Assembly (NCBI GenBank): GCA_022402525.1
Contig: JAKRSB010000139.1
Span: forward strand, 1 to 64,000
Length of the DNA stretch: 64,000 bases
From: Thermosynechococcaceae cyanobacterium MS004
GTDB lineage: Bacteria; Cyanobacteriota; Cyanobacteriia; Thermosynechococcales; Thermosynechococcaceae
Direction of reading: 5' to 3'
Shown: one piece after another, positions 1,550 to 20,874 of the stretch
Layout: each line of letters opens with the position of its first letter
Position numbering within the stretch: the first letter of the stretch is position 1
Notes under the pieces: generated by a model
What the model was told of the DNA's origin: nothing
The model's database searches: none
What the model saw: the letters and a program-made list of their open reading frames with translations, nothing else
Program-made: the position numbers and the translations under genes

Positions 1550-4060
1550 CTAAATTTTTACGGTTGACTTGAGAAGGCCGCTGTAGGGTTTGCCGATTAG
1601 ACGGATCAGGCGTTGCCGAAAAATTTCCCAGTTTAAAGGCTTTGTGATGTAATCAGTTACGCCTGACTCGAAGGCACGGGCGACTGACGCTGAGTCATCC
1701 AGCGCTGTAATCATCAAAATTGGCAGTTCGCCACCTGACGTATTCCCGCGCTCAGCTTCTTCAGCGCGAATTTGACGGCAGCAAGCAAAGCCATCAAGTC
1801 CTGGCATCATGCCTTCTATCAAAATAAGGTCAGGCTTGAGTTGACGGTAAAGCTCTAACCCCTCCTGACCGCTCTCTGCCTCGACTACGCGATAACCGTC
1901 TTTAAAGAGCGCCCGTCGCAAGAGATTTCGCATCTCTCTCTCGTTATCCACCAACAGCACTAATGGCGCAGAATCCGAGGCCTCGTTAGCGATAGAAAGC
2001 AAGTCTTCAGATTCCATCAGGAGTTCGCGAACTTCATGAAGCTGCATTAGCATGGGTTGAACCGCTTCGGATGGAACCGCTAAAAGATACCCTTTGCCAA
2101 AGTCCGTACCCAACGCTTTGAGCCGACCGAGCTGTTCGGATGATTCAATGCCTTCCGCAATAACATCCATATTTTGTTCACGGGCAAGCACAATAATAGA
2201 TTCAATGAGAGAGTCGGCTTCTGGATTAAAGTCGAGTTGCCGCACCAGTTGGCGATCCAGTTCTAAAGCATTGAGCGGAAAATGATTTAAATTCCGAACA
2301 GAGGTAGTCCCTTGGCCAAAATTGTCCAAGCAAATCAAAATCTGGCGTTCTTTTAGGCGCAGTAAAATACCTGTGCTTGCAGCACCATCGTTTAGCAAGA
2401 CTGTTTCAGGAATATCTAATGAAATTTGACTCCCCGCAATATCGTATTCCTGCATTAAGCGATCCAGAAGCGGAACAAGTCCGGGATCAAAAAACTGACG
2501 CTGAGAAAGGTTTAGCTTAAGATAAAGCGGATAATTAACAGGCTTTTGCCAGCTACGGAATTGCCTAAAGGCTTCTGTAAACGTATGTTCTCCAATTTCC
2601 AAGATGCAGCCTGTTTCCTCTGCCAAGTTCAAAAACTCACTAGGCGGCAGTAGCCCTCGTAACGGATGCTGCCAGTGAACGAGAACTTCCAGTCCACGAA
2701 TGGCTCCTGTTCTTAAGGAGAAGATAGGCTGAAAGAAAAGCTGAAATTCTTTTTGGGCAATGGCACGCCTGAGGTCGCTATCTTTTAAGACGGCTCGCTC
2801 CAGCATTTGTAAATATTGCTTGCCGATCAGCTGAGGTGTAAAGCGATTTTGAACATAGCAATACCCCAGACTTCCCATCCGCTCTTGAGTTTTAGGATCT
2901 TGAGCCAGATGCCGAATAAAAGCCGCCAGTCCTTTGCTGTCGCCGGGCTGGAAAGCTGCACCACAGTTCGCATCGGCAATCAGTTGGCGGAGGTAAGAAT
3001 GAGGCTCACAAATTGCGGCAATAGGGCGACCACAGGCTAAGGCAGAATAGAATTTGCTCGGTGCTACAACGCCTTCCATCCCTTCTCCAACACTCACGAG
3101 GGATAGATCACAGGCGGTGAGTGAAAAGGGAAGTACTTCTTTATCTTGGTAAGGTAAAAAGAGACAGTTTTGCAGTTGAAGCGATTCAACTCGCTCCATA
3201 ATAGGCTGTCGCTTTGGCCCCGCGCCAATAAAGACGAAGTGAATGGGTTCGTTTTGAAGCTCTTCTGCGGCATCAATGATTGTTTCTAAGTCATGGCAGC
3301 GGCCCATATTGCCAGAGTACAGCACGACAAACTTGTCCTGTAAAAGATGCTGAGCGGCAAAGGGATTTTCTGATTTCGGAATGGGTTTGATACGTTCGGG
3401 GTCAGACCAGTTATGAATAATAGAGATTTTCTTTGCTACGGTGGGCGCTTTATTCACGACGCGCTCCTTCATCGTTTCGCTTAGAACAATGATGGATTCG
3501 GCGCGCCGCCAAACCGACTGGTTAATCCGATTCCATAGTTTTACAATCCAACTCCCTTCGGAGGCCATGCCAAATTCAACGACTGCATCTGGATATAAAT
3601 CGTAGATCAAGCAGATGTAGGGTGTCTTGAAAAGGCGATGAGCAATGTAACCTACCACGAATAGAAAGGGCGGTTCGGTGGTTAAGAGCAGTACATCTCC
3701 TCGATGAGCGGATTTAAGGAGATGAATGACGGAACGAAAGCTGTACAGCAGGCCTGCAATTGTACGCCCAAGATATTTTCGGGTTTTGGTGATGCGCGAT
3801 CGCTGTATCCTAACTTGCCCTTTGGTCTCATGGGCAGGGGCTTTTGCGGCATTAAAGGCATAGCTCGGCTGTCCAGTAAAGACCTGAACCTCCATTTTTT
3901 GCTCAACTAGGTAGTTTGCCAGTTCTTCGATAAGTTGGCCAGTGGCAGCAAAATCAGGAGGGTAATATTGCGTCAGAATAGAAAGCCGCACAATGCGAGC
4001 CAAGGGGGGTGGAGAGACCACGGCAGATTTTACGCTTTCTGTTGACTTCATGAAACCCAA
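1550..4060 (-). CDS. Glycosyltransferase (GT4, WcaI-like) - EAL - receiver domain fusion
   Basis: An 836-residue protein in one uninterrupted frame with three modules. Residues ~22-425 are a WcaI-type GT4 glycosyltransferase (start RLSILTQYYPPDFAATGQLI; donor-site region VAPSKFYSALACGRP), expected to add a sugar to a lipid-linked glycan at the inner membrane face. Residues ~432-690 are an EAL domain, the c-di-GMP phosphodiesterase fold, but degenerate: ExLxR is EVLVH, DDFG is DNFG, the LKID lysine is replaced (LELD) and the QGY glutamine is Lys. The metal-ligand Asn (LKLNLS) and two Glu (DIPET, AEGIE) remain. Residues ~698-828 are a receiver domain whose phospho-acceptor Asp is Glu (LIEGMMPG, ~residue 749), with Thr and Lys retained. 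I infer an inactive or binding-only EAL and a non-phosphorylatable receiver regulating the transferase. The start may be 4060 or 4051. Confidence 0.9.
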   Translation of the reverse strand: MGFMKSTESVKSAVVSPPPLARIVRLSILTQYYPPDFAATGQLIEELANYLVEQKMEVQVFTGQPSYAFNAAKAPAHETKGQVRIQRSRITKTRKYLGRTIAGLLYSFRSVIHLLKSAHRGDVLLLTTEPPFLFVVGYIAHRLFKTPYICLIYDLYPDAVVEFGMASEGSWIVKLWNRINQSVWRRAESIIVLSETMKERVVNKAPTVAKKISIIHNWSDPERIKPIPKSENPFAAQHLLQDKFVVLYSGNMGRCHDLETIIDAAEELQNEPIHFVFIGAGPKRQPIMERVESLQLQNCLFLPYQDKEVLPFSLTACDLSLVSVGEGMEGVVAPSKFYSALACGRPIAAICEPHSYLRQLIADANCGAAFQPGDSKGLAAFIRHLAQDPKTQERMGSLGYCYVQNRFTPQLIGKQYLQMLERAVLKDSDLRRAIAQKEFQLFFQPIFSLRTGAIRGLEVLVHWQHPLRGLLPPSEFLNLAEETGCILEIGEHTFTEAFRQFRSWQKPVNYPLYLKLNLSQRQFFDPGLVPLLDRLMQEYDIAGSQISLDIPETVLLNDGAASTGILLRLKERQILICLDNFGQGTTSVRNLNHFPLNALELDRQLVRQLDFNPEADSLIESIIVLAREQNMDVIAEGIESSEQLGRLKALGTDFGKGYLLAVPSEAVQPMLMQLHEVRELLMESEDLLSIANEASDSAPLVLLVDNEREMRNLLRRALFKDGYRVVEAESGQEGLELYRQLKPDLILIEGMMPGLDGFACCRQIRAEEAERGNTSGGELPILMITALDDSASVARAFESGVTDYITKPLNWEIFRQRLIRLIGKPYSGLLKSTVKI

Positions 4061-4741: not shown

Positions 4742-5416
4742 TTATCTGATCACTCCTCGCAATGCAGTATGTCCTTTGAAAACTTTTCGGATTCCCAAAA
4801 AGGCAAAAATCAACAATAGGCCCAGGGTTTGTGAGAATTCAAAGGGAACTGGTGTTGGCGAGGTGGTATCACTGCTCGTCGTCTCGCTCGCCGATCCACT
4901 TCCGCTGCTGCTTGAGGATGGGGCTGACGTCACGCCTGCACTGTCAGTATCAGATGAAGCGATCGCCGAGGTTGAACTGCTGAAGGCTGATGTGCTTGCT
5001 ACCGTGGCACCGATATTTGAGGTGTCGCCGCTAGCGCTAGAAGATGCAAGCTGTACATTGCCTGTAAAAGCAGCCATTTGCAATGTGCTGTCTTGGGGTA
5101 AGGTTAGCGCTGACCACTGATCGGGCACAGACGAAAATGCATTGCTCAAGGTGATGGGATCTGCTTCATTGGAAATATTGTCAAACGGAACAACCAACTG
5201 ATTCCCCAAGTCAATGGGTTGAGTGGTTATTCCCGTACTGAGATCGTCGGTACCGGTAGTATCGGCTCTAAGCTTGCTAATGTCTACCAGCCATAAACTA
5301 CTATCGGCTAAGCTAACTGACACTTGCTGGTCACTCAAGTTAGCGTAGTTATCTGGCGCAGATAGCTCGGACGTGATGACGTAATTGTCAATGGGTGCGA
5401 CGGTCAGAGATCCCAT
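4742..5416 (-). CDS. PFE-CTERM-type surface protein, candidate cyanoexosortase substrate
   Basis: A 224-residue protein. Residues ~1-115 look like a folded acidic domain that I do not recognise. Residues ~120-185 are a Ser/Thr/Ala-rich low-complexity linker, likely extracellular and possibly glycosylated. The C-terminus has PTPVPFEFSQTLGLLLIFAF followed by a basic end (GIRKVFK...R). This tripartite signal (a PxPFEF motif, a hydrophobic helix and positive charges) matches the cyanobacterial PFE-CTERM variant of exosortase sorting signals as I know it. A cyanoexosortase A gene 2.3 kb away supports processing by that enzyme. Oddly, no N-terminal signal peptide is visible, and an in-frame TAA upstream excludes a longer start. 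Secretion would then need a non-classical route or the gene is 5'-truncated. Confidence 0.7.
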   Translation of the reverse strand: MGSLTVAPIDNYVITSELSAPDNYANLSDQQVSVSLADSSLWLVDISKLRADTTGTDDLSTGITTQPIDLGNQLVVPFDNISNEADPITLSNAFSSVPDQWSALTLPQDSTLQMAAFTGNVQLASSSASGDTSNIGATVASTSAFSSSTSAIASSDTDSAGVTSAPSSSSSGSGSASETTSSDTTSPTPVPFEFSQTLGLLLIFAFLGIRKVFKGHTALRGVIR

Positions 5417-5668: not shown

Positions 5669-6223
5669 TTAGAGGACAGGAGCGATCATCTTCCGTAGCT
5701 TGACCGCTTGAGCAGGGTTTCCGGCATTGATGGTCATCGGCTCTAAAGACTTTGCAGCAACGCCGCCTAATGCAAGCACTGCACCTTCTCCAATCGTCAC
5801 TCCAGGGCCAATAATAGCTTTTGCACCAATCCAACTGCCGCACTTAACCCGAATGGGCGAACACTTGAGGGCAAACTCGGGATGGGTCCAATCGTGATTT
5901 CCGGTGCATAGGTAAACGCCTTGAGAGAGGCAGACATGCTCCTCAATCACAATCTCTGCCAGATTATCAATCCAGCAGTCTTCCCCTAGCCAAGCGTAAG
6001 CCCCAACCTGAAGCCGCCAGGGAAACTTTACCCGCACGCCTGTCTTAAGCCGGACACCTTCGCCAATGTGCGCCCCAAATAACCGCAGAATAAAGACTTT
6101 GACCGCAGAGACAGGCAGCCAACGATTGGCCACTAATGGGTAGCCCACAAAGTACCACAACAACTGCTTCCACAGTGGTGCGCCAGGGGTATACTCACCC
6201 ACCGTATAGGTATCGAGTCTCAT
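5669..6223 (-). CDS. wcaF: WcaF-like colanic-acid-type O-acetyltransferase (left-handed beta helix)
   Basis: An acetyltransferase of about 184 residues that would acetylate a sugar of the exported polysaccharide using acetyl-CoA. The N-terminus LDTYTVGEYTPGAPLWKQLL is typical of WcaF. The C-terminal half has hexapeptide repeats (IGEGVR, IGAKAI, IGPGVT, IGEGAV) and the catalytic-type His segment TGNHDWTHPEF. The frame is open to a further ATG at 6298/6313, because the first ~12 codons are duplicated 75 bp upstream. I chose 6223 since it gives the family-length protein, but a product 25 residues longer starting MKLDTYTVGEQ is equally readable. The next gene downstream on the same strand is the PFE-CTERM protein. 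Confidence 0.85.
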   Translation of the reverse strand: MRLDTYTVGEYTPGAPLWKQLLWYFVGYPLVANRWLPVSAVKVFILRLFGAHIGEGVRLKTGVRVKFPWRLQVGAYAWLGEDCWIDNLAEIVIEEHVCLSQGVYLCTGNHDWTHPEFALKCSPIRVKCGSWIGAKAIIGPGVTIGEGAVLALGGVAAKSLEPMTINAGNPAQAVKLRKMIAPVL

Positions 6224-6306
6224 AGTCAGCCTTTGCGCAAGTTCCAAAGTGACTTTCTGAGTTTTCTGTTCACCCACTGTATAGGTATCGAGTTTCATGG
6301 TCAGCC
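6195..6306. repeat. In-frame duplication of the wcaF start region (37-bp copies, 75-bp period)
   Basis: The segments 6195-6231 and 6270-6306 are 37 bp each and differ at only three positions. Each encodes LTM(K/R)LDTYTVGE including an ATG. The 75-bp offset is exactly 25 codons, so the upstream copy stays in frame with the gene and offers a second start. Confidence 0.85.
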
Positions 6307-6313
6307 CTCTCAA

Positions 6314-6613: not shown

Positions 6614-7675
6614 ATGACCGCAACGCACCCCGAAGATACTTCTTTACAAGTGTCCGAACAGCCCACCCTAGAGACTTGGGTAGATGATTTGGATCGGACT
6701 TTAGAGGCTCTCGACAAAAATAATGCAGATCACAAAGTTGGAGGGGGTACCTCAGGGGGACGATCCCCCGAATCGCTGCATTCCCCTACCGCTGAAGCCC
6801 CTGAACAATTAATCTATGGGGCAGAGATCGCCCCTCACTCTTCTATAAGTTCCCCGCAGCATGCCTCCAGCCGCAGGGTGACTGAATCACTCATCACGCC
6901 CAATACGCTGTTCATTGCGAGATTAATCGGCTATGGGCTGATGATGATGGGGTTTATCGATTTACTTTACATCCTCATTCCGCCGCAGTTAGCCAACCCT
7001 GTGTGGGAGTATCAGGCAATTGGCGACATTGTAAAGCTGGTTCCGGTTCCAATTTTGGCATTACTGCTGGTTTTTGCGGGCGAAAAATCGACGCGTCACA
7101 AGCTAGAGTTGAAGCTCCTTACCGTGCTGTCTTGGCTCACGCTTGTGATTAGCATTCTCTTTTTTCTGCTGCTGCCGCTGATTGTGACCAACTCTTTTAA
7201 GATTGATCGCTTCAACAACACCCAGATCACTACTGAAGTCAAGCAGCAAAAGCAAAAGCTCGATGCAACACAGAAACAAGTGCAAAACATGGATGGGGAA
7301 CAGCTCAAGTTCTTTATCCCTACGCCAGATAAGATTGGCAGTCTAGGCTCTTTACCCAATTCTCCAGCCCAAGCTAAAACCAGTATCTCTGCGAACTTGG
7401 AGCGAGCCAAGGCTAAGGCTGACGCGCAAGCCGCAGAAGCCCGAAAAAACGTAACCGCAAATCTTGTGAAAAATACGTTTCGGCTTTTTGCTGAGGCGTT
7501 AATTGCTGGGGTTATCTTTTTAATGTTTTGGTCACGGACGGACTGGGCAAGACAAAGGTCGGTACGGCGCTCTGCTCCAGGAGTGCCGTCAGCAACGTCA
7601 GTCTCTAGCGGCAAGCCTGGCGGCAAGTCTGGCGGCAAGTCGAATGGCAAAGCTAAAAAACAACGTTTCCGCTAG
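6614..7675 (+). CDS. hpsJ: HpsJ family protein, exosortase-associated membrane protein
   Basis: A 353-residue membrane protein of the HpsJ family, named from the hormogonium polysaccharide locus of Nostoc and often found beside cyanobacterial exosortases. The N-terminal ~95 residues are a polar, probably disordered cytoplasmic stretch. TM helices follow at ~98-120 (RLIGYGLMMMGFIDLLYILI), ~135-155 and ~170-195. A charged coiled-coil-like region (KQQKQKLDATQKQVQ, later ERAKAKADAQAAEARKN) precedes a last helix at ~295-312. The tail is a Gly/Lys/Ser repeat (GKPGGKSGGKSNGKAKK). It is the first gene of a three-gene plus-strand unit, with five bases to the exosortase start. Its biochemical role is unknown; it probably helps secrete or assemble the polysaccharide and sorted proteins. 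Confidence 0.8.
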   Translation: MTATHPEDTSLQVSEQPTLETWVDDLDRTLEALDKNNADHKVGGGTSGGRSPESLHSPTAEAPEQLIYGAEIAPHSSISSPQHASSRRVTESLITPNTLFIARLIGYGLMMMGFIDLLYILIPPQLANPVWEYQAIGDIVKLVPVPILALLLVFAGEKSTRHKLELKLLTVLSWLTLVISILFFLLLPLIVTNSFKIDRFNNTQITTEVKQQKQKLDATQKQVQNMDGEQLKFFIPTPDKIGSLGSLPNSPAQAKTSISANLERAKAKADAQAAEARKNVTANLVKNTFRLFAEALIAGVIFLMFWSRTDWARQRSVRRSAPGVPSATSVSSGKPGGKSGGKSNGKAKKQRFR

Positions 7676-7680
7676 GGTCT

Positions 7681-8592
7681 ATGCCCTTTGCTCTTGAACC
7701 TATGTTTCTGGTTCGGTTTAAAACGCTCTGGCAATCCAGTTTTGCTCCCCCTGCTCTGGCATCTTTCCCTTGGCTGATTGCCCTGAGTCTGGGGTTAATT
7801 GCACTGCACTTAACCCTGCTGTGGCGGGTTGGGCTACAGATGGATGATTTGGTATTGAATAGCGCGTTTTGGGCTGTTCTCTACCCCAAACTTTATCAAA
7901 AGTACCACCGAGCACATGTCGGAGAGTCTGCGATCGCCTTTTGGATAGGAGTGATGCTTGTCGCCGGCATTCTGATGAGATGCACATCGCTGTACGGCAT
8001 TGATGCTCCCTTTGCTAAGCTCATGCCCCTGCTCATTATCATCAGCATGGGGCTAATAGCTTCTGGCTGGAAAGTCTATCGGGATTGGCCGCAACTGTTG
8101 CTGATAGCGCCTTTAGCCATGCCCCAAACGCTCATCAACAGCGGAATGAGCCATGGCGCTGGGGAACCTTTGCAGATTGCCACGGCAAAGACAGCAACCT
8201 TTGTGTTGCACTACCTTGGATTTGCGATTTCTACCCACCAGACCATCATTACCTTACCCCAGGGGAGTGTGGAAATCGAGCTGGCCTGTACTGCCTTTCC
8301 ATCCCTCTTGGTGTTATTGCAGCTTGCCGTGCTGTTTGGTGCAATGCTGCCGATTCCGTGGCGGCAGCAGGCGGTGGTATGGACACTTTCGGCCAGTTTT
8401 GCTGGCGTTGCCAGTGTGGTACGAGTGGCTATTCTTGCCTTTTCGGTTGATCGCCCTGAGTTATTTTCCTTCTGGCACGGCGACCCCGGTCAGCAAATCA
8501 TCTCTACGGGGCTAATTTTGTGCATGGTCACGATCCATCACTTTTTTTACCGCCAGGGGGAACTCCAGGGGGTTACTGATGCTCAAGGCTAA
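7681..8592 (+). CDS. crtA: Cyanoexosortase A
   Basis: A 303-residue polytopic membrane transpeptidase-like protease of the exosortase/archaeosortase superfamily. It is expected to cleave C-terminal sorting signals outside the membrane and transfer the protein to an acceptor. Around eight hydrophobic helices are visible. The catalytic triad pattern is present: Cys at ~203 in ELACTAFPSLL, Arg at ~248 in SVVRVAIL and His at ~266 in FWHGDPGQQ. It overlaps the next gene by 14 bp, which suggests translational coupling, and follows hpsJ by 5 bp. The best candidate substrate nearby is the PFE-CTERM protein at 4742-5416. Assignment to the A subclass rests on the neighbour and overall pattern. The symbol is the one used for the TIGR family and should not be confused with carotenoid crtA. 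Confidence 0.85.
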   Translation: MPFALEPMFLVRFKTLWQSSFAPPALASFPWLIALSLGLIALHLTLLWRVGLQMDDLVLNSAFWAVLYPKLYQKYHRAHVGESAIAFWIGVMLVAGILMRCTSLYGIDAPFAKLMPLLIIISMGLIASGWKVYRDWPQLLLIAPLAMPQTLINSGMSHGAGEPLQIATAKTATFVLHYLGFAISTHQTIITLPQGSVEIELACTAFPSLLVLLQLAVLFGAMLPIPWRQQAVVWTLSASFAGVASVVRVAILAFSVDRPELFSFWHGDPGQQIISTGLILCMVTIHHFFYRQGELQGVTDAQG

Positions 8593-9289
8593 GCCTTTAC
8601 GCACAGTCGGCTTAATGGTGCTGACCGTTGGGGTTCTGTCCAGTTTGGGCAAGCTCCTTGTGCAACCTCAGTCGCTTCAGAACCAGTCTTCTCGCCAACT
8701 GCCTCAAACCCTTCAGCTTTCTGGCTGGACAGGCACTCAACGCAGTCCGCTACCTCGCTCCGAGGTATCAACTCGCTACGACATTGTGTTAGATGCCCAA
8801 GAATATCGCTTTCGTCAGCGCTCTACAGCCTTAACGGTGCAGCTTCGCTATGTTTTTAATACGGACGGTAGCCTAGATACCCTACAGGAGAAATGGGTGA
8901 CGGGGCGATCGCCTGTCCGACCAACGACTCAAACCTCAGAACAAATTACAGCGCTAGGTTACCATGCTTTATCTACCGCCCCAAAAGAGACAGTGCCAGA
9001 GAAAATTCAAGAGACAACTTTAGATACTTGCCTCAACCCCCACGGTAAAACCACTATCACCAGAAGACAGTTCTTAGAGACTCGTCTGAGGCACGACCTA
9101 AACCCCATTCACTTAATGCAGTGGAGCATAGGTCAAACCCCGTTGTTGAATAAACAATGCATCTGGATGCGCCTCATCCTGCACTCAACCCCTCATCGCT
9201 CATCTTCAGCTTTAAGTGAGCAGCTTTATCAAACGCTGAAAGAACTCTATCCTCAGCTGATGACAACCCTACACAAGCCACGCTCTTAG
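8579..9289 (+). CDS. Cyanoexosortase A system-associated protein
   Basis: A 236-residue protein with an N-terminal hydrophobic anchor at ~9-25 (VGLMVLTVGVLSSLGKLLV) and a soluble extracytoplasmic remainder. It begins inside the last codons of the exosortase gene (14-bp overlap), the usual arrangement for the exosortase-associated (EpsI-like) partner. The sequence has LQLSGWTGTQRSPLPRSE and YRFRQRSTALTVQLRYVFNT, resembling the cyanobacterial subfamily. Family function is not established; it is thought to aid the sortase or its polysaccharide context. It converges with the Wzc-like gene across a 72-bp gap that contains two short tandem duplications (ATTATTTCTGCC and AAGCATCTCC). Confidence 0.75.
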   Translation: MLKAKPLRTVGLMVLTVGVLSSLGKLLVQPQSLQNQSSRQLPQTLQLSGWTGTQRSPLPRSEVSTRYDIVLDAQEYRFRQRSTALTVQLRYVFNTDGSLDTLQEKWVTGRSPVRPTTQTSEQITALGYHALSTAPKETVPEKIQETTLDTCLNPHGKTTITRRQFLETRLRHDLNPIHLMQWSIGQTPLLNKQCIWMRLILHSTPHRSSSALSEQLYQTLKELYPQLMTTLHKPRS

Positions 9290-9361: not shown

Positions 9362-11671
9362 TTAACGGAAGCGACGGAACCACTTAAAGGTATATTCTTT
9401 AACGCTATTTGCCGCAATTCCCACAACTGGAATTTTTGCAATGCTTAGGCGATCTAGAGCATTGGTTAAGTTTGTCGATGCGCCCCACTTTCTAAATTTC
9501 ACCACCAGCAGCACCCCATCGGTATGGGTTGCAAGAATGCCTAGATCTGCTAATCCCATGAGGGGAGGCGTGTCATAAATAACAATGTCAAAAGACTCCC
9601 GTACACGGCGCATAAATTCCTGCATGCGGGGAGAAGCCAGCGCTCGTGTTGGATCTGGGGGAGAAGTTCCGGCGCTGATAAAAAATAAATCGTTTTCCCA
9701 ATTGAGGGGACGAATGACCTGCTTGAGGGTGTTTTGCCCCATCAAGAAATCTCCTAATCCAGGGCGAGGTGCCATTCCGAGGAACTCGCTGGCCGCATTA
9801 CCCCCACCCTGAAAATGAGCGTCAACTAGCAACACCCGCTGGCTCATAGCAGCCGCAGCCTGCGCCAAGTGGAGCGCAATAATGGTGCGTCCCTCTCCCT
9901 GCGATGCGGAACTGACCGCAAGTGTCCACTGCTTTGAGTTATCTTGAACTCTTGAAATGTAGGTATTGAGCGTGCGAAAGGCTTCTAGAAAACCGTAGGT
10001 ACTCCCCGTAGGGACGGGCGCAGGAAAATCGTCTTCCCCATCTACAATCACTACGTCTGTATTAAAGTCAGCATTAAAGTCAGCGTCATTGTTAGCGTCA
10101 TCGTCACGATAGGTAGGCTTTGTCAGATCTGAGTTGGGCAGTATGAATGCTTTTTCTAATAAAGGTCGCCAGTCTACGGCGTAGGCGTCAGTGCCTGCGG
10201 AGCGTAAGTCTTTGCGATAGGGAATGGTGCCCAAAATTGGAAGTCGGGTTATGCGCCGTAAGTCGCTGACCGTGTAGAAGGCTCCTTCGATCCGCTCTAG
10301 CAAAACGGCAAGCACGATGGATAGCACTGCACCACCAATAAAACCGGATATTACTCCCTTCATAAAGCTACCCTTAGGGAGGGGAATAGGTTCTTTGGTC
10401 GGACGTACCAATTGCCACGGCACTTGATTTTGAGCAGCTTCGATTTCAAGCCCTTCTCTAGACGTTATAAATCGCTCTAGGCTTTCATTAGCGGCCTTCA
10501 GATCGCGCTGTAGGTCTGCAAAAATCCGAGAGACTGAGGGCATTTTTTGATATTTAAGATTGATTTGGCGCTGAATTTCTGCCAGCGACCTTTCTCGCGC
10601 AGATGAAATCTGCATGTCGTTATTGAGCGTCGCCAACTGGTTTTTGACGGCTCTTTGAGCCTCAGATTGAAGTAGGGGGATCAAATTCGCCTGCTGCTGT
10701 CGCAACATTTTAATCGTGGGGCTATTCTCCCCAAACCGAGCCAGCTCAATGGCGATTTGGCGATCTAAGGCCTGGAACTGAGAGAGGAATTCTTTATAGG
10801 TTGGAGATTGATTGATTGTAACAAGCGCTCCATCCTGCTTTTTCAAGATGCTATGCCGAATTTTCATCGTATCCAGCTCGTTGCGTAGCGCTTGTCTTTG
10901 CTGGGTAATATCTGCAATTTTTTTATAGAGATCAGCAGAATAGGACTCAGGCTCTACGAAATTAAAGGTTTGCCTGAGATTTTGAATTTGATCTTGAATC
11001 TGATTGACTCTTTTGCGGAATTCTGGTAGCTGCTCATCAACAAATTTAATCCCTTGTCTCAGACTGGCGCGCTGTTCCTCAAAGCTATATTTTAAATAGC
11101 CTTTAGACACCTTTTCGAGAATAAATTTAATTTTTTCTGGATTTTCATCCTTTAACTTAACTTCAATAACTTTGGTTTCGCCAAGCCGATAGACCGTCAA
11201 GCTTTTGTTTAGGTATTCAGCTGTTACCTCAGGAAATCTCTGATTGATTTCTGCGACGATGGGTGCCAAGACCTTAGGACTCAGTAAAACCTCAATCTGC
11301 GTTGTATAGTCAAACTCTACGTTTGAACCTCCAGCTTGTTTCTCTCCCGTCAGATTGGAAAGCTTTTGTTTTTCAGTGACGGGCTGTACCAAGAGTTGAA
11401 AAGTGCTTTCATAGGTGAGCTCTTCCTTATAGGCTTTAAGTCCAGAAAATAAAGCTAGTCCGATGGATAGCCCCATAATCAAAACTTTTTTCCGCCGCGC
11501 CATTCCAATTAATTTAGGGATGTTGACGGAGCCTTCAGAGCTTTCTGGGACTGTGAGTAATTCCGCATCGTGATCGCTAAACTTGGCGGTGCCGACAGGC
11601 TTTTTTGTAGTGCCTAAATTAGAATTAGATATCTCATCCATTGGAAGTGTTTTTGAAGCCTCAATTGTCAA
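9362..11671 (-). CDS. Wzc/GumC-like polysaccharide co-polymerase with degenerate tyrosine-kinase domain
   Basis: A 769-residue inner-membrane protein controlling polysaccharide chain length and export. A Wzz-type domain begins after a first TM helix at ~59-78 (VLIMGLSIGLALFSGL). Long coiled coils (~200-400) lead to a second TM helix at ~437-460, and a cytoplasmic CpsD-type ATPase domain occupies ~560-760. The ATPase domain departs from active BY-kinases. The Walker A is SSASQGEGRTII, with Arg (~595) where the catalytic Lys should be. Walker A' is VLLVDAHF rather than (I/V)DAD, and Walker B (IVIYDTPP) is intact. No C-terminal tyrosine cluster is present; the end is EYTFKWFRRFR. I infer a structural co-polymerase without kinase activity. 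It follows the Wza-like gene by 86 bp on the same strand. Confidence 0.85.
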   Translation of the reverse strand: MTIEASKTLPMDEISNSNLGTTKKPVGTAKFSDHDAELLTVPESSEGSVNIPKLIGMARRKKVLIMGLSIGLALFSGLKAYKEELTYESTFQLLVQPVTEKQKLSNLTGEKQAGGSNVEFDYTTQIEVLLSPKVLAPIVAEINQRFPEVTAEYLNKSLTVYRLGETKVIEVKLKDENPEKIKFILEKVSKGYLKYSFEEQRASLRQGIKFVDEQLPEFRKRVNQIQDQIQNLRQTFNFVEPESYSADLYKKIADITQQRQALRNELDTMKIRHSILKKQDGALVTINQSPTYKEFLSQFQALDRQIAIELARFGENSPTIKMLRQQQANLIPLLQSEAQRAVKNQLATLNNDMQISSARERSLAEIQRQINLKYQKMPSVSRIFADLQRDLKAANESLERFITSREGLEIEAAQNQVPWQLVRPTKEPIPLPKGSFMKGVISGFIGGAVLSIVLAVLLERIEGAFYTVSDLRRITRLPILGTIPYRKDLRSAGTDAYAVDWRPLLEKAFILPNSDLTKPTYRDDDANNDADFNADFNTDVVIVDGEDDFPAPVPTGSTYGFLEAFRTLNTYISRVQDNSKQWTLAVSSASQGEGRTIIALHLAQAAAAMSQRVLLVDAHFQGGGNAASEFLGMAPRPGLGDFLMGQNTLKQVIRPLNWENDLFFISAGTSPPDPTRALASPRMQEFMRRVRESFDIVIYDTPPLMGLADLGILATHTDGVLLVVKFRKWGASTNLTNALDRLSIAKIPVVGIAANSVKEYTFKWFRRFR

Positions 11672-11757: not shown

Positions 11758-13272
11758 CTACTTTGTCGCCGGAAACAAGAAGTTAAAGAAGTTCAAGAAG
11801 GAAAAGGATTGACTGATCGGGGAAAGAATCTTGCTTAAAATATCGCCATAGCGCGCCAGGGTGGAGCTTCCGACCAGCACGACGTCTCTGTGCTGCAAAA
11901 TCGGATTTGCATTCTCACTAATGGAGTCTGACCAGCGGACGGGATATTTCCGACGGGTGACGGAACCATCTGGATTAGCTCGAATCAATTCGACGGTTTT
12001 CACTTGGGCACGTCTGTTAAAACCCCCAACCAATAGCAGGGCTTGATTAAGGGAGGTATTGGGGGGAACTTTTACAAGCCCTGGCGAGAGCACTTCGCCC
12101 AAAATGCCAACCTGCATATCGGTTGGGGATAGGTTGGCCGAGCCAATCAGGCTTGCCTCTTCGGGCTGGACGGGGGCTCTCTGGAGCAAGATGCGATCGC
12201 CACTGCGCAGGGTGATATCTTGCCGAAGGTCAGCATTCTGAATGAGCGCCCAAAGGTTTACGTCTAAAACCTGATCTGTCCCATTGGGGCTGAGGCGGTA
12301 AACCTTCACCTGCTTGAGGTCGGCAGTCCCTGTAATTCCTCCAGCAAAGGCGATCGCATCGGTAATGGTGGGCAGCTTGGTATCGACGACGGGAATGTTG
12401 TATGCGCCGGGGCGATTGATGGCTCCGGACAGCGCAATTTTGAGGGGGCTGGAGGCCAGGAGCTGCACCGCAATAAATGGCTTTCGTAAAACATCGGTCT
12501 GGACGTAGCGTTCTGTAACGGCCTGAGTCGCCTCAGCTAAAGTCATGCCCCAGAGCGATAGCGATCCGGCAACGGGTAAGTTAACTGTGCCATCACTCAT
12601 GATTACGTTCTTGGTCGTAAACTCTGGAACGTTTGCCACGAAGATAGAAATGCTATCGCCAATGGCGAGACGATACGTATCCAGCTCGTAGGGGTTGACG
12701 ACGCGGGGAACCGTTCCGGGAATTGGAGGGGGCGCGCTGGAATCTGCTCCAGCAGGGCTGAGGGGCGCGTTGTCTAGGCTGGGGTTTAAGGGGGACGCTG
12801 TGACCTGTGACCCTGGAATTTTGGGGAATGGAAATTGTGGCGCGATGGCCCCTGGAAAAGGGATCGAAGGTGCTGCTAGAACTGCTGGAGGCACCTTGGT
12901 TGGAGGGGTGACCCCAGGTGGAGTCGAAAAAATGGGTTGAAAACTAGCTTGAGGCCTAGGGGGTTGAGCTGTAGGGGCCGCAATAGGGGCTGCAATAGGG
13001 GCCGCTATTGGGGCTGCTATTGGGGTTTGCGTTAAGGGAACTGTTGGGACAGGAAGCCCATTATTATTGAGCCCGCTATTATTGAGCCCACCATTATTGA
13101 TCTGGGGCTTTAAGACGGGTAGCCTCGGAAACGAGGGTCGTGGCGCACTTTGGGTGGGGACGGGTCTGAAGCCCAGTGCTGCGGCAAAGACAGATACCGT
13201 ACTCAGTGCGATCGCAACGGTGCGGCGATCGCAGCTAAGTCGAAGTGAGTTTGGGGTGGACTGAACAGGCAT
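11758..13272 (-). CDS. Outer-membrane polysaccharide export protein (Wza/OPX family)
   Basis: A 504-residue OPX protein. It begins with a basic N-terminus and hydrophobic stretch (RTVAIALSTVSVFAAALGF), a probable signal sequence without an obvious lipobox. A long Pro/Ala/Asn-rich linker (~45-190) follows, containing two tandem repeats. The export domain ~195-280 starts DTYRLAIGDSISIFVANVPE and is the PES motif region. At least two SLBB-type domains follow (~290-370 and ~395-470), with SGAINRPGAYNIP and LGEVLSPGLVKVP as their first strands. It would form the outer-membrane or periplasmic channel working with the Wzc-like protein just downstream. The low-complexity linker is much longer than in enterobacterial Wza, as is common in cyanobacteria. 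Confidence 0.88.
   Translation of the reverse strand: MPVQSTPNSLRLSCDRRTVAIALSTVSVFAAALGFRPVPTQSAPRPSFPRLPVLKPQINNGGLNNSGLNNNGLPVPTVPLTQTPIAAPIAAPIAAPIAAPTAQPPRPQASFQPIFSTPPGVTPPTKVPPAVLAAPSIPFPGAIAPQFPFPKIPGSQVTASPLNPSLDNAPLSPAGADSSAPPPIPGTVPRVVNPYELDTYRLAIGDSISIFVANVPEFTTKNVIMSDGTVNLPVAGSLSLWGMTLAEATQAVTERYVQTDVLRKPFIAVQLLASSPLKIALSGAINRPGAYNIPVVDTKLPTITDAIAFAGGITGTADLKQVKVYRLSPNGTDQVLDVNLWALIQNADLRQDITLRSGDRILLQRAPVQPEEASLIGSANLSPTDMQVGILGEVLSPGLVKVPPNTSLNQALLLVGGFNRRAQVKTVELIRANPDGSVTRRKYPVRWSDSISENANPILQHRDVVLVGSSTLARYGDILSKILSPISQSFSFLNFFNFLFPATK
12974..13107. repeat. Two in-frame tandem repeats in the Wza-like gene (12 bp x4 and 15 bp x3)
   Basis: At 12974-13021 four 12-bp units of the form GGGGCYGCWATW encode the tetrapeptide PIAA repeated. 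At 13063-13107 three 15-bp units beginning ATTATTGAGCCC encode NNGGL/NNSGL/NNNGL. Both keep frame and lie in the proline-rich linker. Confidence 0.85.
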
Positions 13273-18351: not shown

Positions 18352-20874
18352 ATGCCCAAGCGTTCCCTCATCGCCTCTCCATCGGGTCGATTGCTGGCCA
18401 AGCAATCTTTCCAAAGAACGGGTTGGACTCAAGAGTATTTAGCCTATCAAGCAGGCCTAGAAACTCGGCAACCCGTCTGGAAATTCTTTTCCGGCCGTCC
18501 CGTTGAGCGACACGTCTTTGTTGAGATCTGCTTTCAGCTCAATCTCGACTGGGAAGATATCGCTGAAGGCCCTGACATTGGCCCTGACATTGCCCTAGAA
18601 CTGGGCCTAGACCTTGCCCTTGATGCGCCTGCAGCGATCAATGCGGAGCCGTCTGTATACCCCGATGCTGCTGAATTTGCAGACCTTAAAGCAAAAGTAC
18701 GACCCTTTATCGAGCGTCGCTGTGGCTTTATTCAAGCGGCTTTAGAAGCAAGCAACGCCCTCCCTCTCGCGCAACTCTATACAGATGTGAAGGTTTTGCC
18801 ATACCTCACCCAGCAGCGCTGGCTAGAGGTTTCTGACTTATCGAGGATTAACATTAACCTCCAGCCTCTCCGACTGAACGAACCTTCTACGGTCTCCACA
18901 TCGGCATTATCAGTGGCAGAAAGTCAGACTCGCCTCATGCTGATTGGCAAACCGGGCGTAGGGAAAACGACGTTCCTGCGGTATTTGGCCCTTCAATGTG
19001 TCAACGGCCATTTCCGAGCCGACTGCATTCCAATGTTTGTGAATTTACGGACTTGGATTGCAGCGTCCAACCTTAACCCCTCGGCTGACCTCACCGAGGC
19101 TCTAGAGGCTTACTGGGCCAAAGATGGGCTGCCCACGCAGGCGATCGCCCCTCTCCTTCAGGCTGGCAGACTTCTCATTTTACTGGATGGGCTAGATGAG
19201 GTGGACACCGCAGACCTGCCTATCCTCAAGGACTGCCTCCAGCGTTTTGCTGAGCGGTATCACCAGTCACCCATCATCATCACCAGCCGAATTGCGTCCA
19301 TTCCTTTTGCATTGCCCCTATTCCACTATGCAGAAGTTGCCGATCTCACCCAAGCCCAAATTGAATACTCGGTGGAGCGGTACTTTACAGCAGCGGGTGC
19401 ACAGGATCATGCTCTTGCCCATCAATTTCTAGTGCAGCTCGCGCATCCCAATAATGCGGCCATTCGGGAGCTAGCCACGACACCTATTTTGCTCCATCTA
19501 CTGTGCCGCGTCTTTCAGGATCGCAAAACGTTCCCCGTAAAACGCGTAAAGCTCTACCAAGCTGGGTTAGAAATGCTGGTCATGGGCTGGGATCAGGTGC
19601 GGGGGAATCATCGCAGCTCCATGACAGATACCTGGTCTGTGGCAGATAAGCTTAAGCTGCTGAGCCATCTTGCGGCCCATTTCTTTGAGCAGGAACGCTA
19701 TTTCTTTGATAAAAACGAGGTTGTGCAGTTTATTGCTCAGTATCTTCAGGCCGAAACGACAGCCCCTATGGATAGGGAGCAGCTTTGGTTTTTGAGCGAA
19801 GGGATTTTGCGCGTGTTTGAAACGCAGCACGGGTTACTGGTGCAGCGTGCCCATAACGTTTATTCCTTTTCTCACCTCACGTTTCAAGAATATTTAACCG
19901 CGCGCAAAATTGCAGCAACCCCAGAACACCGACTGCCAGAGATACTGCAACAATTGGTTCAACAAGGGATTCAAGACGGGGTTCAACAAGGGGCACACCA
20001 ATGGGCGCAACAAGGGGATGTGCCCCATTGGCGCGAGGTGATTAGCATGACCAGTGGACTGCTGCATCAGCCCCAACTGCTGCTAGAGCCGCTGTTGCAA
20101 GCCATTCAGCAGAACGTTGACAAGATACCTGAAATTCAGCCGCTGGTGGCACAGGTGCAGCAAAAAATAAAAAAACTCGCGGCCAATCTGAATCCCACGG
20201 CGCTCAGGCTATTTTACGTGGCGCTCTCGCGCAACTGGGGATGGGGAACAGCGATCGCCTCAGATCCGCGCATCGCTCAGTCACTTTCTGACCCTCTAGG
20301 CTTAGACCCTTTAGACTCAGGCCCAGTGCAAACTCGCCTGTTTCCCCAGTGCGACAGGGTTGAGGCAGAAGTAGACTATCGCGCAATCTTAAACCTATAT
20401 TCTCCCCTTGACCTAGAACCCAAACCTCTGAGTCCTGCACCTGAATCTGCCCCTGAATCTGAACGGCGATCGCAGTGGCAGGTCAGCACCGCCCAACTTG
20501 CTCCATTAAATCTGGAGAAAGACCACCTATTGGCCTGGTGGAATAGCTCTGGCACCCTCTGGCGTCAACAATTTTTTCGGCTGTTGGCGGATCGGTGCTT
20601 TGGGGTGGCAGAACCGCTATCGGGAGAGCTGGGGTGGCAGCTTGTCAGCTACTACAAATCTCTTCAGTTGTTTATGACCTGTCTACAAGAGGCAACCCTC
20701 CACCCAGAACTGCGGCGTCAATTGCAAGACCAAGTTTTACAATCTATCGACCCATCTATCAGCCCATCTATCAACCCATCACTCGACTCAGATCCCTCAA
20801 CCCCTCCACCGCTCAAGCAGGGAAAGCGCCAACATGTTCACCGTCGTGACTGGGTGATGCCTACGGCTGGTTAG
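18352..20874 (+). CDS. NACHT-domain STAND NTPase with N-terminal HTH
   Basis: An 840-residue signal-transduction ATPase. Residues ~10-75 form a helix-turn-helix-like domain (GWTQEYLAYQAGLETRQPVW, then KFFSGRPVERHVFVEICFQL) seen on many cyanobacterial NACHT proteins. The NACHT core begins at ~200 with Walker A LMLIGKPGVGKTTFLRYLAL, Walker B LLILLDGLDEVD and sensor segment IIITSRIASIPFA. The characteristic FSHLTFQEYLTARKI comes at ~500. The C-terminal third is helical and ends in a low-complexity SIxPS repeat. Bacterial NACHT proteins include anti-phage effectors and sensors, so defence is a reasonable hypothesis. No toxic effector domain such as a nuclease or TIR is visible. It is a single plus-strand gene inside the polysaccharide locus, divergent from the initiating transferase. 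Confidence 0.85.
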   Translation: MPKRSLIASPSGRLLAKQSFQRTGWTQEYLAYQAGLETRQPVWKFFSGRPVERHVFVEICFQLNLDWEDIAEGPDIGPDIALELGLDLALDAPAAINAEPSVYPDAAEFADLKAKVRPFIERRCGFIQAALEASNALPLAQLYTDVKVLPYLTQQRWLEVSDLSRININLQPLRLNEPSTVSTSALSVAESQTRLMLIGKPGVGKTTFLRYLALQCVNGHFRADCIPMFVNLRTWIAASNLNPSADLTEALEAYWAKDGLPTQAIAPLLQAGRLLILLDGLDEVDTADLPILKDCLQRFAERYHQSPIIITSRIASIPFALPLFHYAEVADLTQAQIEYSVERYFTAAGAQDHALAHQFLVQLAHPNNAAIRELATTPILLHLLCRVFQDRKTFPVKRVKLYQAGLEMLVMGWDQVRGNHRSSMTDTWSVADKLKLLSHLAAHFFEQERYFFDKNEVVQFIAQYLQAETTAPMDREQLWFLSEGILRVFETQHGLLVQRAHNVYSFSHLTFQEYLTARKIAATPEHRLPEILQQLVQQGIQDGVQQGAHQWAQQGDVPHWREVISMTSGLLHQPQLLLEPLLQAIQQNVDKIPEIQPLVAQVQQKIKKLAANLNPTALRLFYVALSRNWGWGTAIASDPRIAQSLSDPLGLDPLDSGPVQTRLFPQCDRVEAEVDYRAILNLYSPLDLEPKPLSPAPESAPESERRSQWQVSTAQLAPLNLEKDHLLAWWNSSGTLWRQQFFRLLADRCFGVAEPLSGELGWQLVSYYKSLQLFMTCLQEATLHPELRRQLQDQVLQSIDPSISPSINPSLDSDPSTPPPLKQGKRQHVHRRDWVMPTAG
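20741..20788. repeat. 12-bp tandem repeat near the 3' end of the NACHT gene
   Basis: Four 12-bp units of the form CATCTATCARCC (first and last degenerate) encode SIDP/SISP/SINP/SLDS. The frame is kept. A second run in the same gene near 19950-20010 encodes QQGxQxG units. Confidence 0.7.

What the first reader, a model, noticed from the sequence alone, without database searches (positions are those of the whole stretch)
1550..4060. Glycosyltransferase fused to an EAL domain and a receiver domain
One 836-codon frame joins a WcaI-type GT4 transferase, an EAL domain and a receiver. Polysaccharide synthesis is widely controlled by c-di-GMP, but usually through PilZ or GGDEF/EAL proteins acting on synthases in trans. 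A transferase carrying its own EAL and receiver modules would be an allosteric glycosyltransferase. I know of no described protein with this order, though I cannot search for one.
Basis: partly seen in the sequence, partly recalled or inferred. Interest (0 to 1): 0.78.

Follow-up and report, generated by a model that had tools for sequence, protein, structure and literature searches.

The report
Sugar transferase with built-in signalling domains
Some cyanobacteria carry one protein that joins a sugar-adding enzyme for surface slime to two signalling modules, an enzymatically dead EAL domain and a two-component receiver; it arose once and is kept by selection, so slime assembly may be switched directly on the enzyme rather than only through gene expression.

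Summary
One uninterrupted 836-codon frame on the minus strand encodes GT4 glycosyltransferase, EAL and receiver (REC), in that order. It is not an assembly accident: 15 other cyanobacterial genomes in at least five families carry the same protein as a single open frame (45-63% identity), the fusion is one clade on a GT tree (100/99), and EAL and REC are under purifying selection as strong as the GT. It lies in exopolysaccharide/exosortase loci, usually beside a PFE-CTERM gene.

The c-di-GMP reading is only partly supported. The EAL is degenerate in every member (4-8 of 10 catalytic residues kept), so it is not a phosphodiesterase. The window copy and its sister (L112) have also lost the pocket arginine (H/Y), Lys (E) and Gln (K). 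The REC keeps its phospho-Asp in 15 of 16 members, and four loci carry a hybrid histidine kinase-HPt nearby; only the window copy has Glu there.

Best reading: a response-regulator glycosyltransferase, with REC as input, a non-catalytic EAL as transducer (possibly a c-di-GMP sensor in relatives) and GT as output. The window copy is a derived, probably signal-locked member. Regulation is inferred; nothing was measured. New variant of a known kind.

The parts
1550..4060 (-). GT4-EAL-REC fusion gene, 836 codons (TTG 4060; alternative ATG 4051)
   Evidence: conserved full length in 15 other genomes
2786..3988 (-). GT4 glycosyltransferase (aa 25-425), WcaI-like; 96 of 101 near-invariant positions of the stand-alone orthologues kept
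2075..2776 (-). Degenerate EAL domain (aa 429-662)
2675..2677 (-). H462 in place of the pocket arginine of ExLxR
2414..2416 (-). D549 in place of a metal-ligand Glu
2321..2323 (-). N580 in place of the second Asp of DDFG
2261..2263 (-). E600 in place of the catalytic Lys
2093..2095 (-). K656 in place of the Gln of QGY
1982..2059 (-). Predicted helix (aa 668-693) joining EAL to REC; confidence falls below 50 at 684-692
1616..1960 (-). Receiver domain (aa 701-815)
1814..1816 (-). E749 at the phospho-acceptor position (Asp in the 15 other members)
1943..1945 (-). N706 in the acidic pocket (Asp in the 15 other members)
4742..5416 (-). PFE-CTERM protein, next gene upstream of the fusion; such a gene lies beside the fusion in 14 of 16 loci
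5669..6313 (-). WcaF-family acetyltransferase, conserved neighbour
6614..7675 (+). HpsJ-like protein, cyanoexosortase A-associated
7681..8592 (+). Cyanoexosortase (A-like; Pfam Exosortase_EpsH)
8579..9289 (+). Cyanoexosortase A system-associated protein (below the curated cut-off)
9362..11671 (-). Wzc-type chain-length/tyrosine autokinase
11758..13272 (-). Wza-type polysaccharide export protein

Best explanation
A family of cyanobacterial glycosyltransferases with response-regulator-style control. The N-terminal GT4 domain adds a sugar during exopolysaccharide assembly in a Wza/Wzc/exosortase locus. The C-terminal receiver takes phosphoryl groups from a hybrid histidine kinase/HPt relay. The EAL between them is no longer an enzyme; it acts as a rigid transducer and possibly, in relatives that keep the pocket arginine, as a second-messenger sensor. 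Phosphorylation therefore changes transferase activity or docking post-translationally. The window copy, with Glu at the phospho site and Asn in the acid pocket, is a derived member whose switch is probably locked. Shown: architecture, single origin, selection on all three domains, EAL degeneration, REC conservation, locus context. Inferred: active GT, phosphorylation, direction of control, locking.
For: Unbroken full-length fusion in 16 genomes, at least 5 families; one clade, 100/99. In close pairs dN/dS of the EAL is 0.03-0.14 and of the REC 0.09-0.10, like the GT's 0.04-0.15. REC D-D-D-T-K set complete in 15 of 16; EAL complete in none. HK-REC-HPt hybrid kinases within about 7 kb in 4 loci (L113, L116, L117, L124); a lone receiver gene in 3 of these and in L115 is the best or near-best match to the fused REC among the sequences compared. 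GT invariant positions kept. EPS/exosortase context.
Against: No kinase, and no other receiver or GGDEF/EAL gene, was found in the window's 64 kb, and 12 of the 16 fusion loci lack a hybrid kinase-HPt gene in the stretch read. The window REC cannot be phosphorylated at the usual Asp. No measurement of transferase activity or regulation exists. REC and EAL could instead serve docking only.
Confidence: 0.48

Rival explanations
1. c-di-GMP-allosteric glycosyltransferase: the inactive EAL binds c-di-GMP like LapD or FimX and switches the GT, with REC tuning it.
For: 13 of 16 members keep the pocket arginine, all keep the Gln of QP and the Glu of EAL, 14 of 16 keep the Gln of QGY. The genome has 17 GGDEF places. 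An orthologous GT (L025) carries a tail resembling MshEN, the c-di-GMP-binding domain that controls the transferase NfrB (PMC8669469). A PAS-GGDEF-EAL gene lies upstream in L119 and a GGDEF-EAL gene in L121.
Against: The window copy and L112 have H or Y for the arginine and K for the Gln; LapD R450 at this place is at the centre of its c-di-GMP site (PMC3032553). Binding cannot be tested here.
Confidence: 0.27
2. The EAL-REC part is a docking scaffold, YdiV-like, that places the GT in the EPS machinery without regulating it.
For: EAL residues are lost while the domain stays under purifying selection; YdiV is an EAL protein that lost catalysis and c-di-GMP binding and works by protein contact (PMC3510510).
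Against: The phospho-Asp and partner residues of the REC are kept in 15 of 16 members, which a pure scaffold does not need.
Confidence: 0.18
3. An active c-di-GMP phosphodiesterase that lowers c-di-GMP locally beside the transferase.
For: EAL fold with close structural matches to active enzymes.
Against: No member keeps all ten catalytic residues; the window has K to E, DD to DN, Q to K, whereas 10 of the 12 other EALs of the same genome that were compared keep all ten.
Confidence: 0.04
4. Assembly error or chance read-through joining separate genes.
For: Stand-alone orthologues of the GT are common.
Against: 15 other genomes carry the same unbroken fusion; one clade.
Confidence: 0.01

Closest known systems
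NfrB of E. coli (GT2 + MshEN; PMC8669469)
   Same: A glycosyltransferase with a C-terminal signalling domain, controlling a surface polysaccharide
   Different: GT2 rather than GT4, MshEN rather than degenerate EAL, no receiver, experimentally shown to bind c-di-GMP
WcaI-like GT4 glycosyltransferases of cyanobacteria (stand-alone, about 425-460 aa)
   Same: Orthologous transferase (50-61% identity), often near Wzc and sometimes WcaF
   Different: No EAL or REC; no EAL gene found beside them in the loci read
LapD / FimX (degenerate EAL receptors)
   Same: Enzymatically dead EAL kept for signalling
   Different: Output is a periplasmic domain or protein partners, not a fused transferase; the window copy lacks the pocket arginine
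RocR / PvrR (REC-EAL response regulators)
   Same: REC and EAL in one chain
   Different: REC is N-terminal, EAL is active, no GT (order and activity from general knowledge)

Membership tests
EAL c-di-GMP phosphodiesterase | Ten conserved catalytic/metal residues (positions from memory of RocR; the count of ten is in PMC3510510) | tested here: not met
   6 of 10 in the window copy, 4-8 in all 16 members
EAL c-di-GMP phosphodiesterase | EAL fold | tested here: met
   Pfam E 3e-60; MucR EAL Z 34.5, rmsd 1.6 over 247 residues
LapD/FimX-type c-di-GMP receptor | Arginine just after the EAL motif at the centre of the c-di-GMP site | tested here: not met
   H462 in the window, Y in L112, H in L116; R in the 13 other members
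LapD/FimX-type c-di-GMP receptor | Binds c-di-GMP | not testable with these tools
   needs ITC or DRaCALA
Phosphorylatable response regulator | Asp phospho-acceptor and acid pocket | tested here: not met
   E749 and N706 in the window; complete in the 15 other members
GT4 glycosyltransferase | GT-B two-domain fold and GT4 Pfam domains | tested here: met
   MshA Z 39.5, HepE Z 35.2
WcaI equivalog (TIGR04007) / WcaI family (NF007640) | Curated score cut-off | tested here: not met
   97.8 against 800.45 bits and 166.6 against 276 bits: WcaI-like, not WcaI
Cyanoexosortase A system | Exosortase, HpsJ-like A protein and sorting-signal substrate together | tested here: inconclusive
   HpsJ_like_A 232 bits and PFE_CTERM 27.2 bits pass; CrtA 107 (cut-off 150) and TIGR04153 86 (cut-off 100) do not

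The most novel reading that the evidence does not exclude
A response-regulator class whose output is a glycosyltransferase: a two-component phosphorelay, relayed through an enzymatically dead EAL that may also read c-di-GMP, directly gates one sugar-transfer step of exopolysaccharide synthesis in exosortase loci, with the window lineage locked on or off by Asp-to-Glu.
Probability: 0.4. Interest if true: 0.75.

Novelty: new variant of a known kind. Interest (0 to 1): 0.6.

Why it matters
Exopolysaccharide synthesis is known to be controlled by transcription or by c-di-GMP acting on membrane synthases. A receiver and an EAL on the same chain as a soluble GT4 would put one sugar-transfer step under direct signal control. 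The natural series, from canonical REC with less degenerate EAL (L113, L124) to doubly degenerate (the window), lets the inputs be tested separately. It also ties cyanobacterial exosortase/PFE-CTERM loci to two-component signalling.

Tried and rejected
Phosphodiesterase function: rejected on residues. Assembly artefact: rejected by 15 genomes. A parental EAL-REC gene: none at E<=1e-75 in 292 genomes. Fusion on plasmids: none covering 80% of the query among the 5000 best records. L068 first looked like a fusion from the tblastn span, but its GT is a separate gene. Order searches around two other families gave no members beyond those already found. Papers: none found that joins glycosyltransferase, EAL and receiver in one protein, but subscription papers and preprints are not held. 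The VIA list is filled by GT and EAL rows and does not test the receiver's fold.

Full report
WHAT IS THERE. The frame at 1550-4060 is on the minus strand, 836 codons, without stops. Pfam gives GT4 domains, EAL (429-662) and Response_reg (701-815), each above its gathering score. An AlphaFold model from 59 aligned sequences has mean pLDDT 90 and pTM 0.72. VIA-align matches the first part to GT4 enzymes (sucrose-phosphate synthase Z 40.4, rmsd 2.6 over 376; MshA 39.5; Anabaena HepE 35.2) and the second to EAL phosphodiesterases (MucR Z 34.5, rmsd 1.6 over 247). A helix from 668 to 693 leads to the receiver; its end is of low confidence.

IS IT REAL. A search of 390 genomes of the class found the fusion in 16, the window's included, in at least five coded families. 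Fetched with flanks, the other 15 are single open frames of 841-913 codons, one longer frame apart (1253, open upstream). Identity to the window protein is 45-63%. One of them is Lyngbya confervoides BDU141951 (L028/L112). Another draw of 386 genomes of the phylum gave no other fusion but 55 other genomes with the transferase alone, so the fusion is patchy and the frequency depends on the sample. Within the window's own order 2 of 29 genomes have it. On a tree of 91 GT domains the 16 fusions are one side of a branch, support 100/99, with the window and L112 as sister to the rest. A single origin is the simplest reading. No near relative of the EAL-REC part alone was found.

SELECTION. In close pairs dN/dS (NG86; some dS values are near saturation) is 0.04-0.15 for GT, 0.03-0.14 for EAL and 0.09-0.10 for REC. 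The GT keeps 96 of 101 positions that are near-invariant in 70 stand-alone orthologues, and all 30 that distant bacterial relatives share as well, so it is probably active. This is inference; the donor and acceptor sugars are unknown.

THE EAL IS DEAD, NOT DECAYING. Of 12 other EAL domains of the same genome, 10 keep all ten catalytic residues; the fused EAL of the window and L112 carries H/Y for the pocket R, D for E, N for D, E for K and K for Q. Over the 16 members 4-8 of ten catalytic residues remain and no member has all. The losses differ by lineage: the Glu of AEGxE goes in one large group, the Lys in another. 13 members keep the pocket arginine, 14 the Gln of QGY. In LapD the arginine just after the degenerate EAL motif lies at the centre of the c-di-GMP site (PMC3032553); YdiV shows that EAL folds can also lose c-di-GMP binding and serve as protein binders (PMC3510510).

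THE RECEIVER. 15 of 16 members keep the acid-pocket pair, the phospho-acceptor Asp, Thr and Lys. Only the window has N706 and E749. Glu at this position sometimes mimics phosphorylation in response regulators (general knowledge); whether it does here is unknown. Read data for these two codons were not available.

NEIGHBOURS. Clustering of genes around the 16 fusions shows a conserved block: PFE-CTERM proteins (14 of 16 loci, counting one divergent copy in L118), DUF218 (10), HpsJ-like (10), exosortase (8), WcaF (7), Wzc (5). In the window the fusion ends a cluster of about 36 kb with many glycosyltransferases, a WecA-type initial transferase, Wzt, Wzc and Wza. Cyanoexosortase B was shown to be needed for motility, biofilm and adherence to polysaccharide in Nostoc (PMC12188702); the A-like type here is untested. 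In L113, L116, L117 and L124 a PAS/GAF histidine kinase with its own REC and HPt lies nearby; three of these and L115 also hold a lone receiver gene, the best or near-best match to the fused REC among the receivers compared. L119 and L121 have a GGDEF-EAL gene upstream. The window has none of these in 64 kb.

MECHANISM. I favour REC as the input, the EAL as a non-catalytic transducer, and the GT as output, with the window copy derived and probably locked (0.48). The c-di-GMP reading (0.27) fits several relatives better than this copy. A scaffold (0.18) explains the EAL but not the kept receiver.

KNOWN KINDS. GTs carrying c-di-GMP modules exist (NfrB: GT2 plus MshEN, PMC8669469), and so do REC-EAL response regulators (RocR). 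A GT4-EAL-REC chain was not found in the papers searched. An orthologous GT in G011 has a tail with weak similarity to MshEN-type domains (PilF E 2e-5, MshE 0.21), a second sign that this transferase acquires signalling modules.

LIMITS.

Noticed in passing
L025:1324-3138: The orthologous GT of G011 is fused to two C-terminal repeats resembling MshEN domains, another possible c-di-GMP module on the same transferase.
   Followed up: partly
window 18352-20874: A NACHT ATPase gene lies inside the polysaccharide cluster; NACHT genes of one cluster also lie near the fusion in L115, L116 and L124.
   Followed up: no
G000:C17:107077-108005: A REC-GGDEF gene whose GGDEF domain is split between two frames, a probable frameshift or pseudogene; its receiver is among the closest in the genome to the fused one.
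   Followed up: no
L113:2255-2860, L124:11226-11846, L115:13640-14371, L116:15060-15569: A lone receiver protein (169-243 aa) near the fusion in four loci, in three of them beside a hybrid kinase-HPt gene.
   Followed up: partly
window 4742-5416 and neighbours in 13 other loci: PFE-CTERM proteins, some with serine/threonine-rich middles, directly beside the fusion; likely exosortase substrates.
   Followed up: partly
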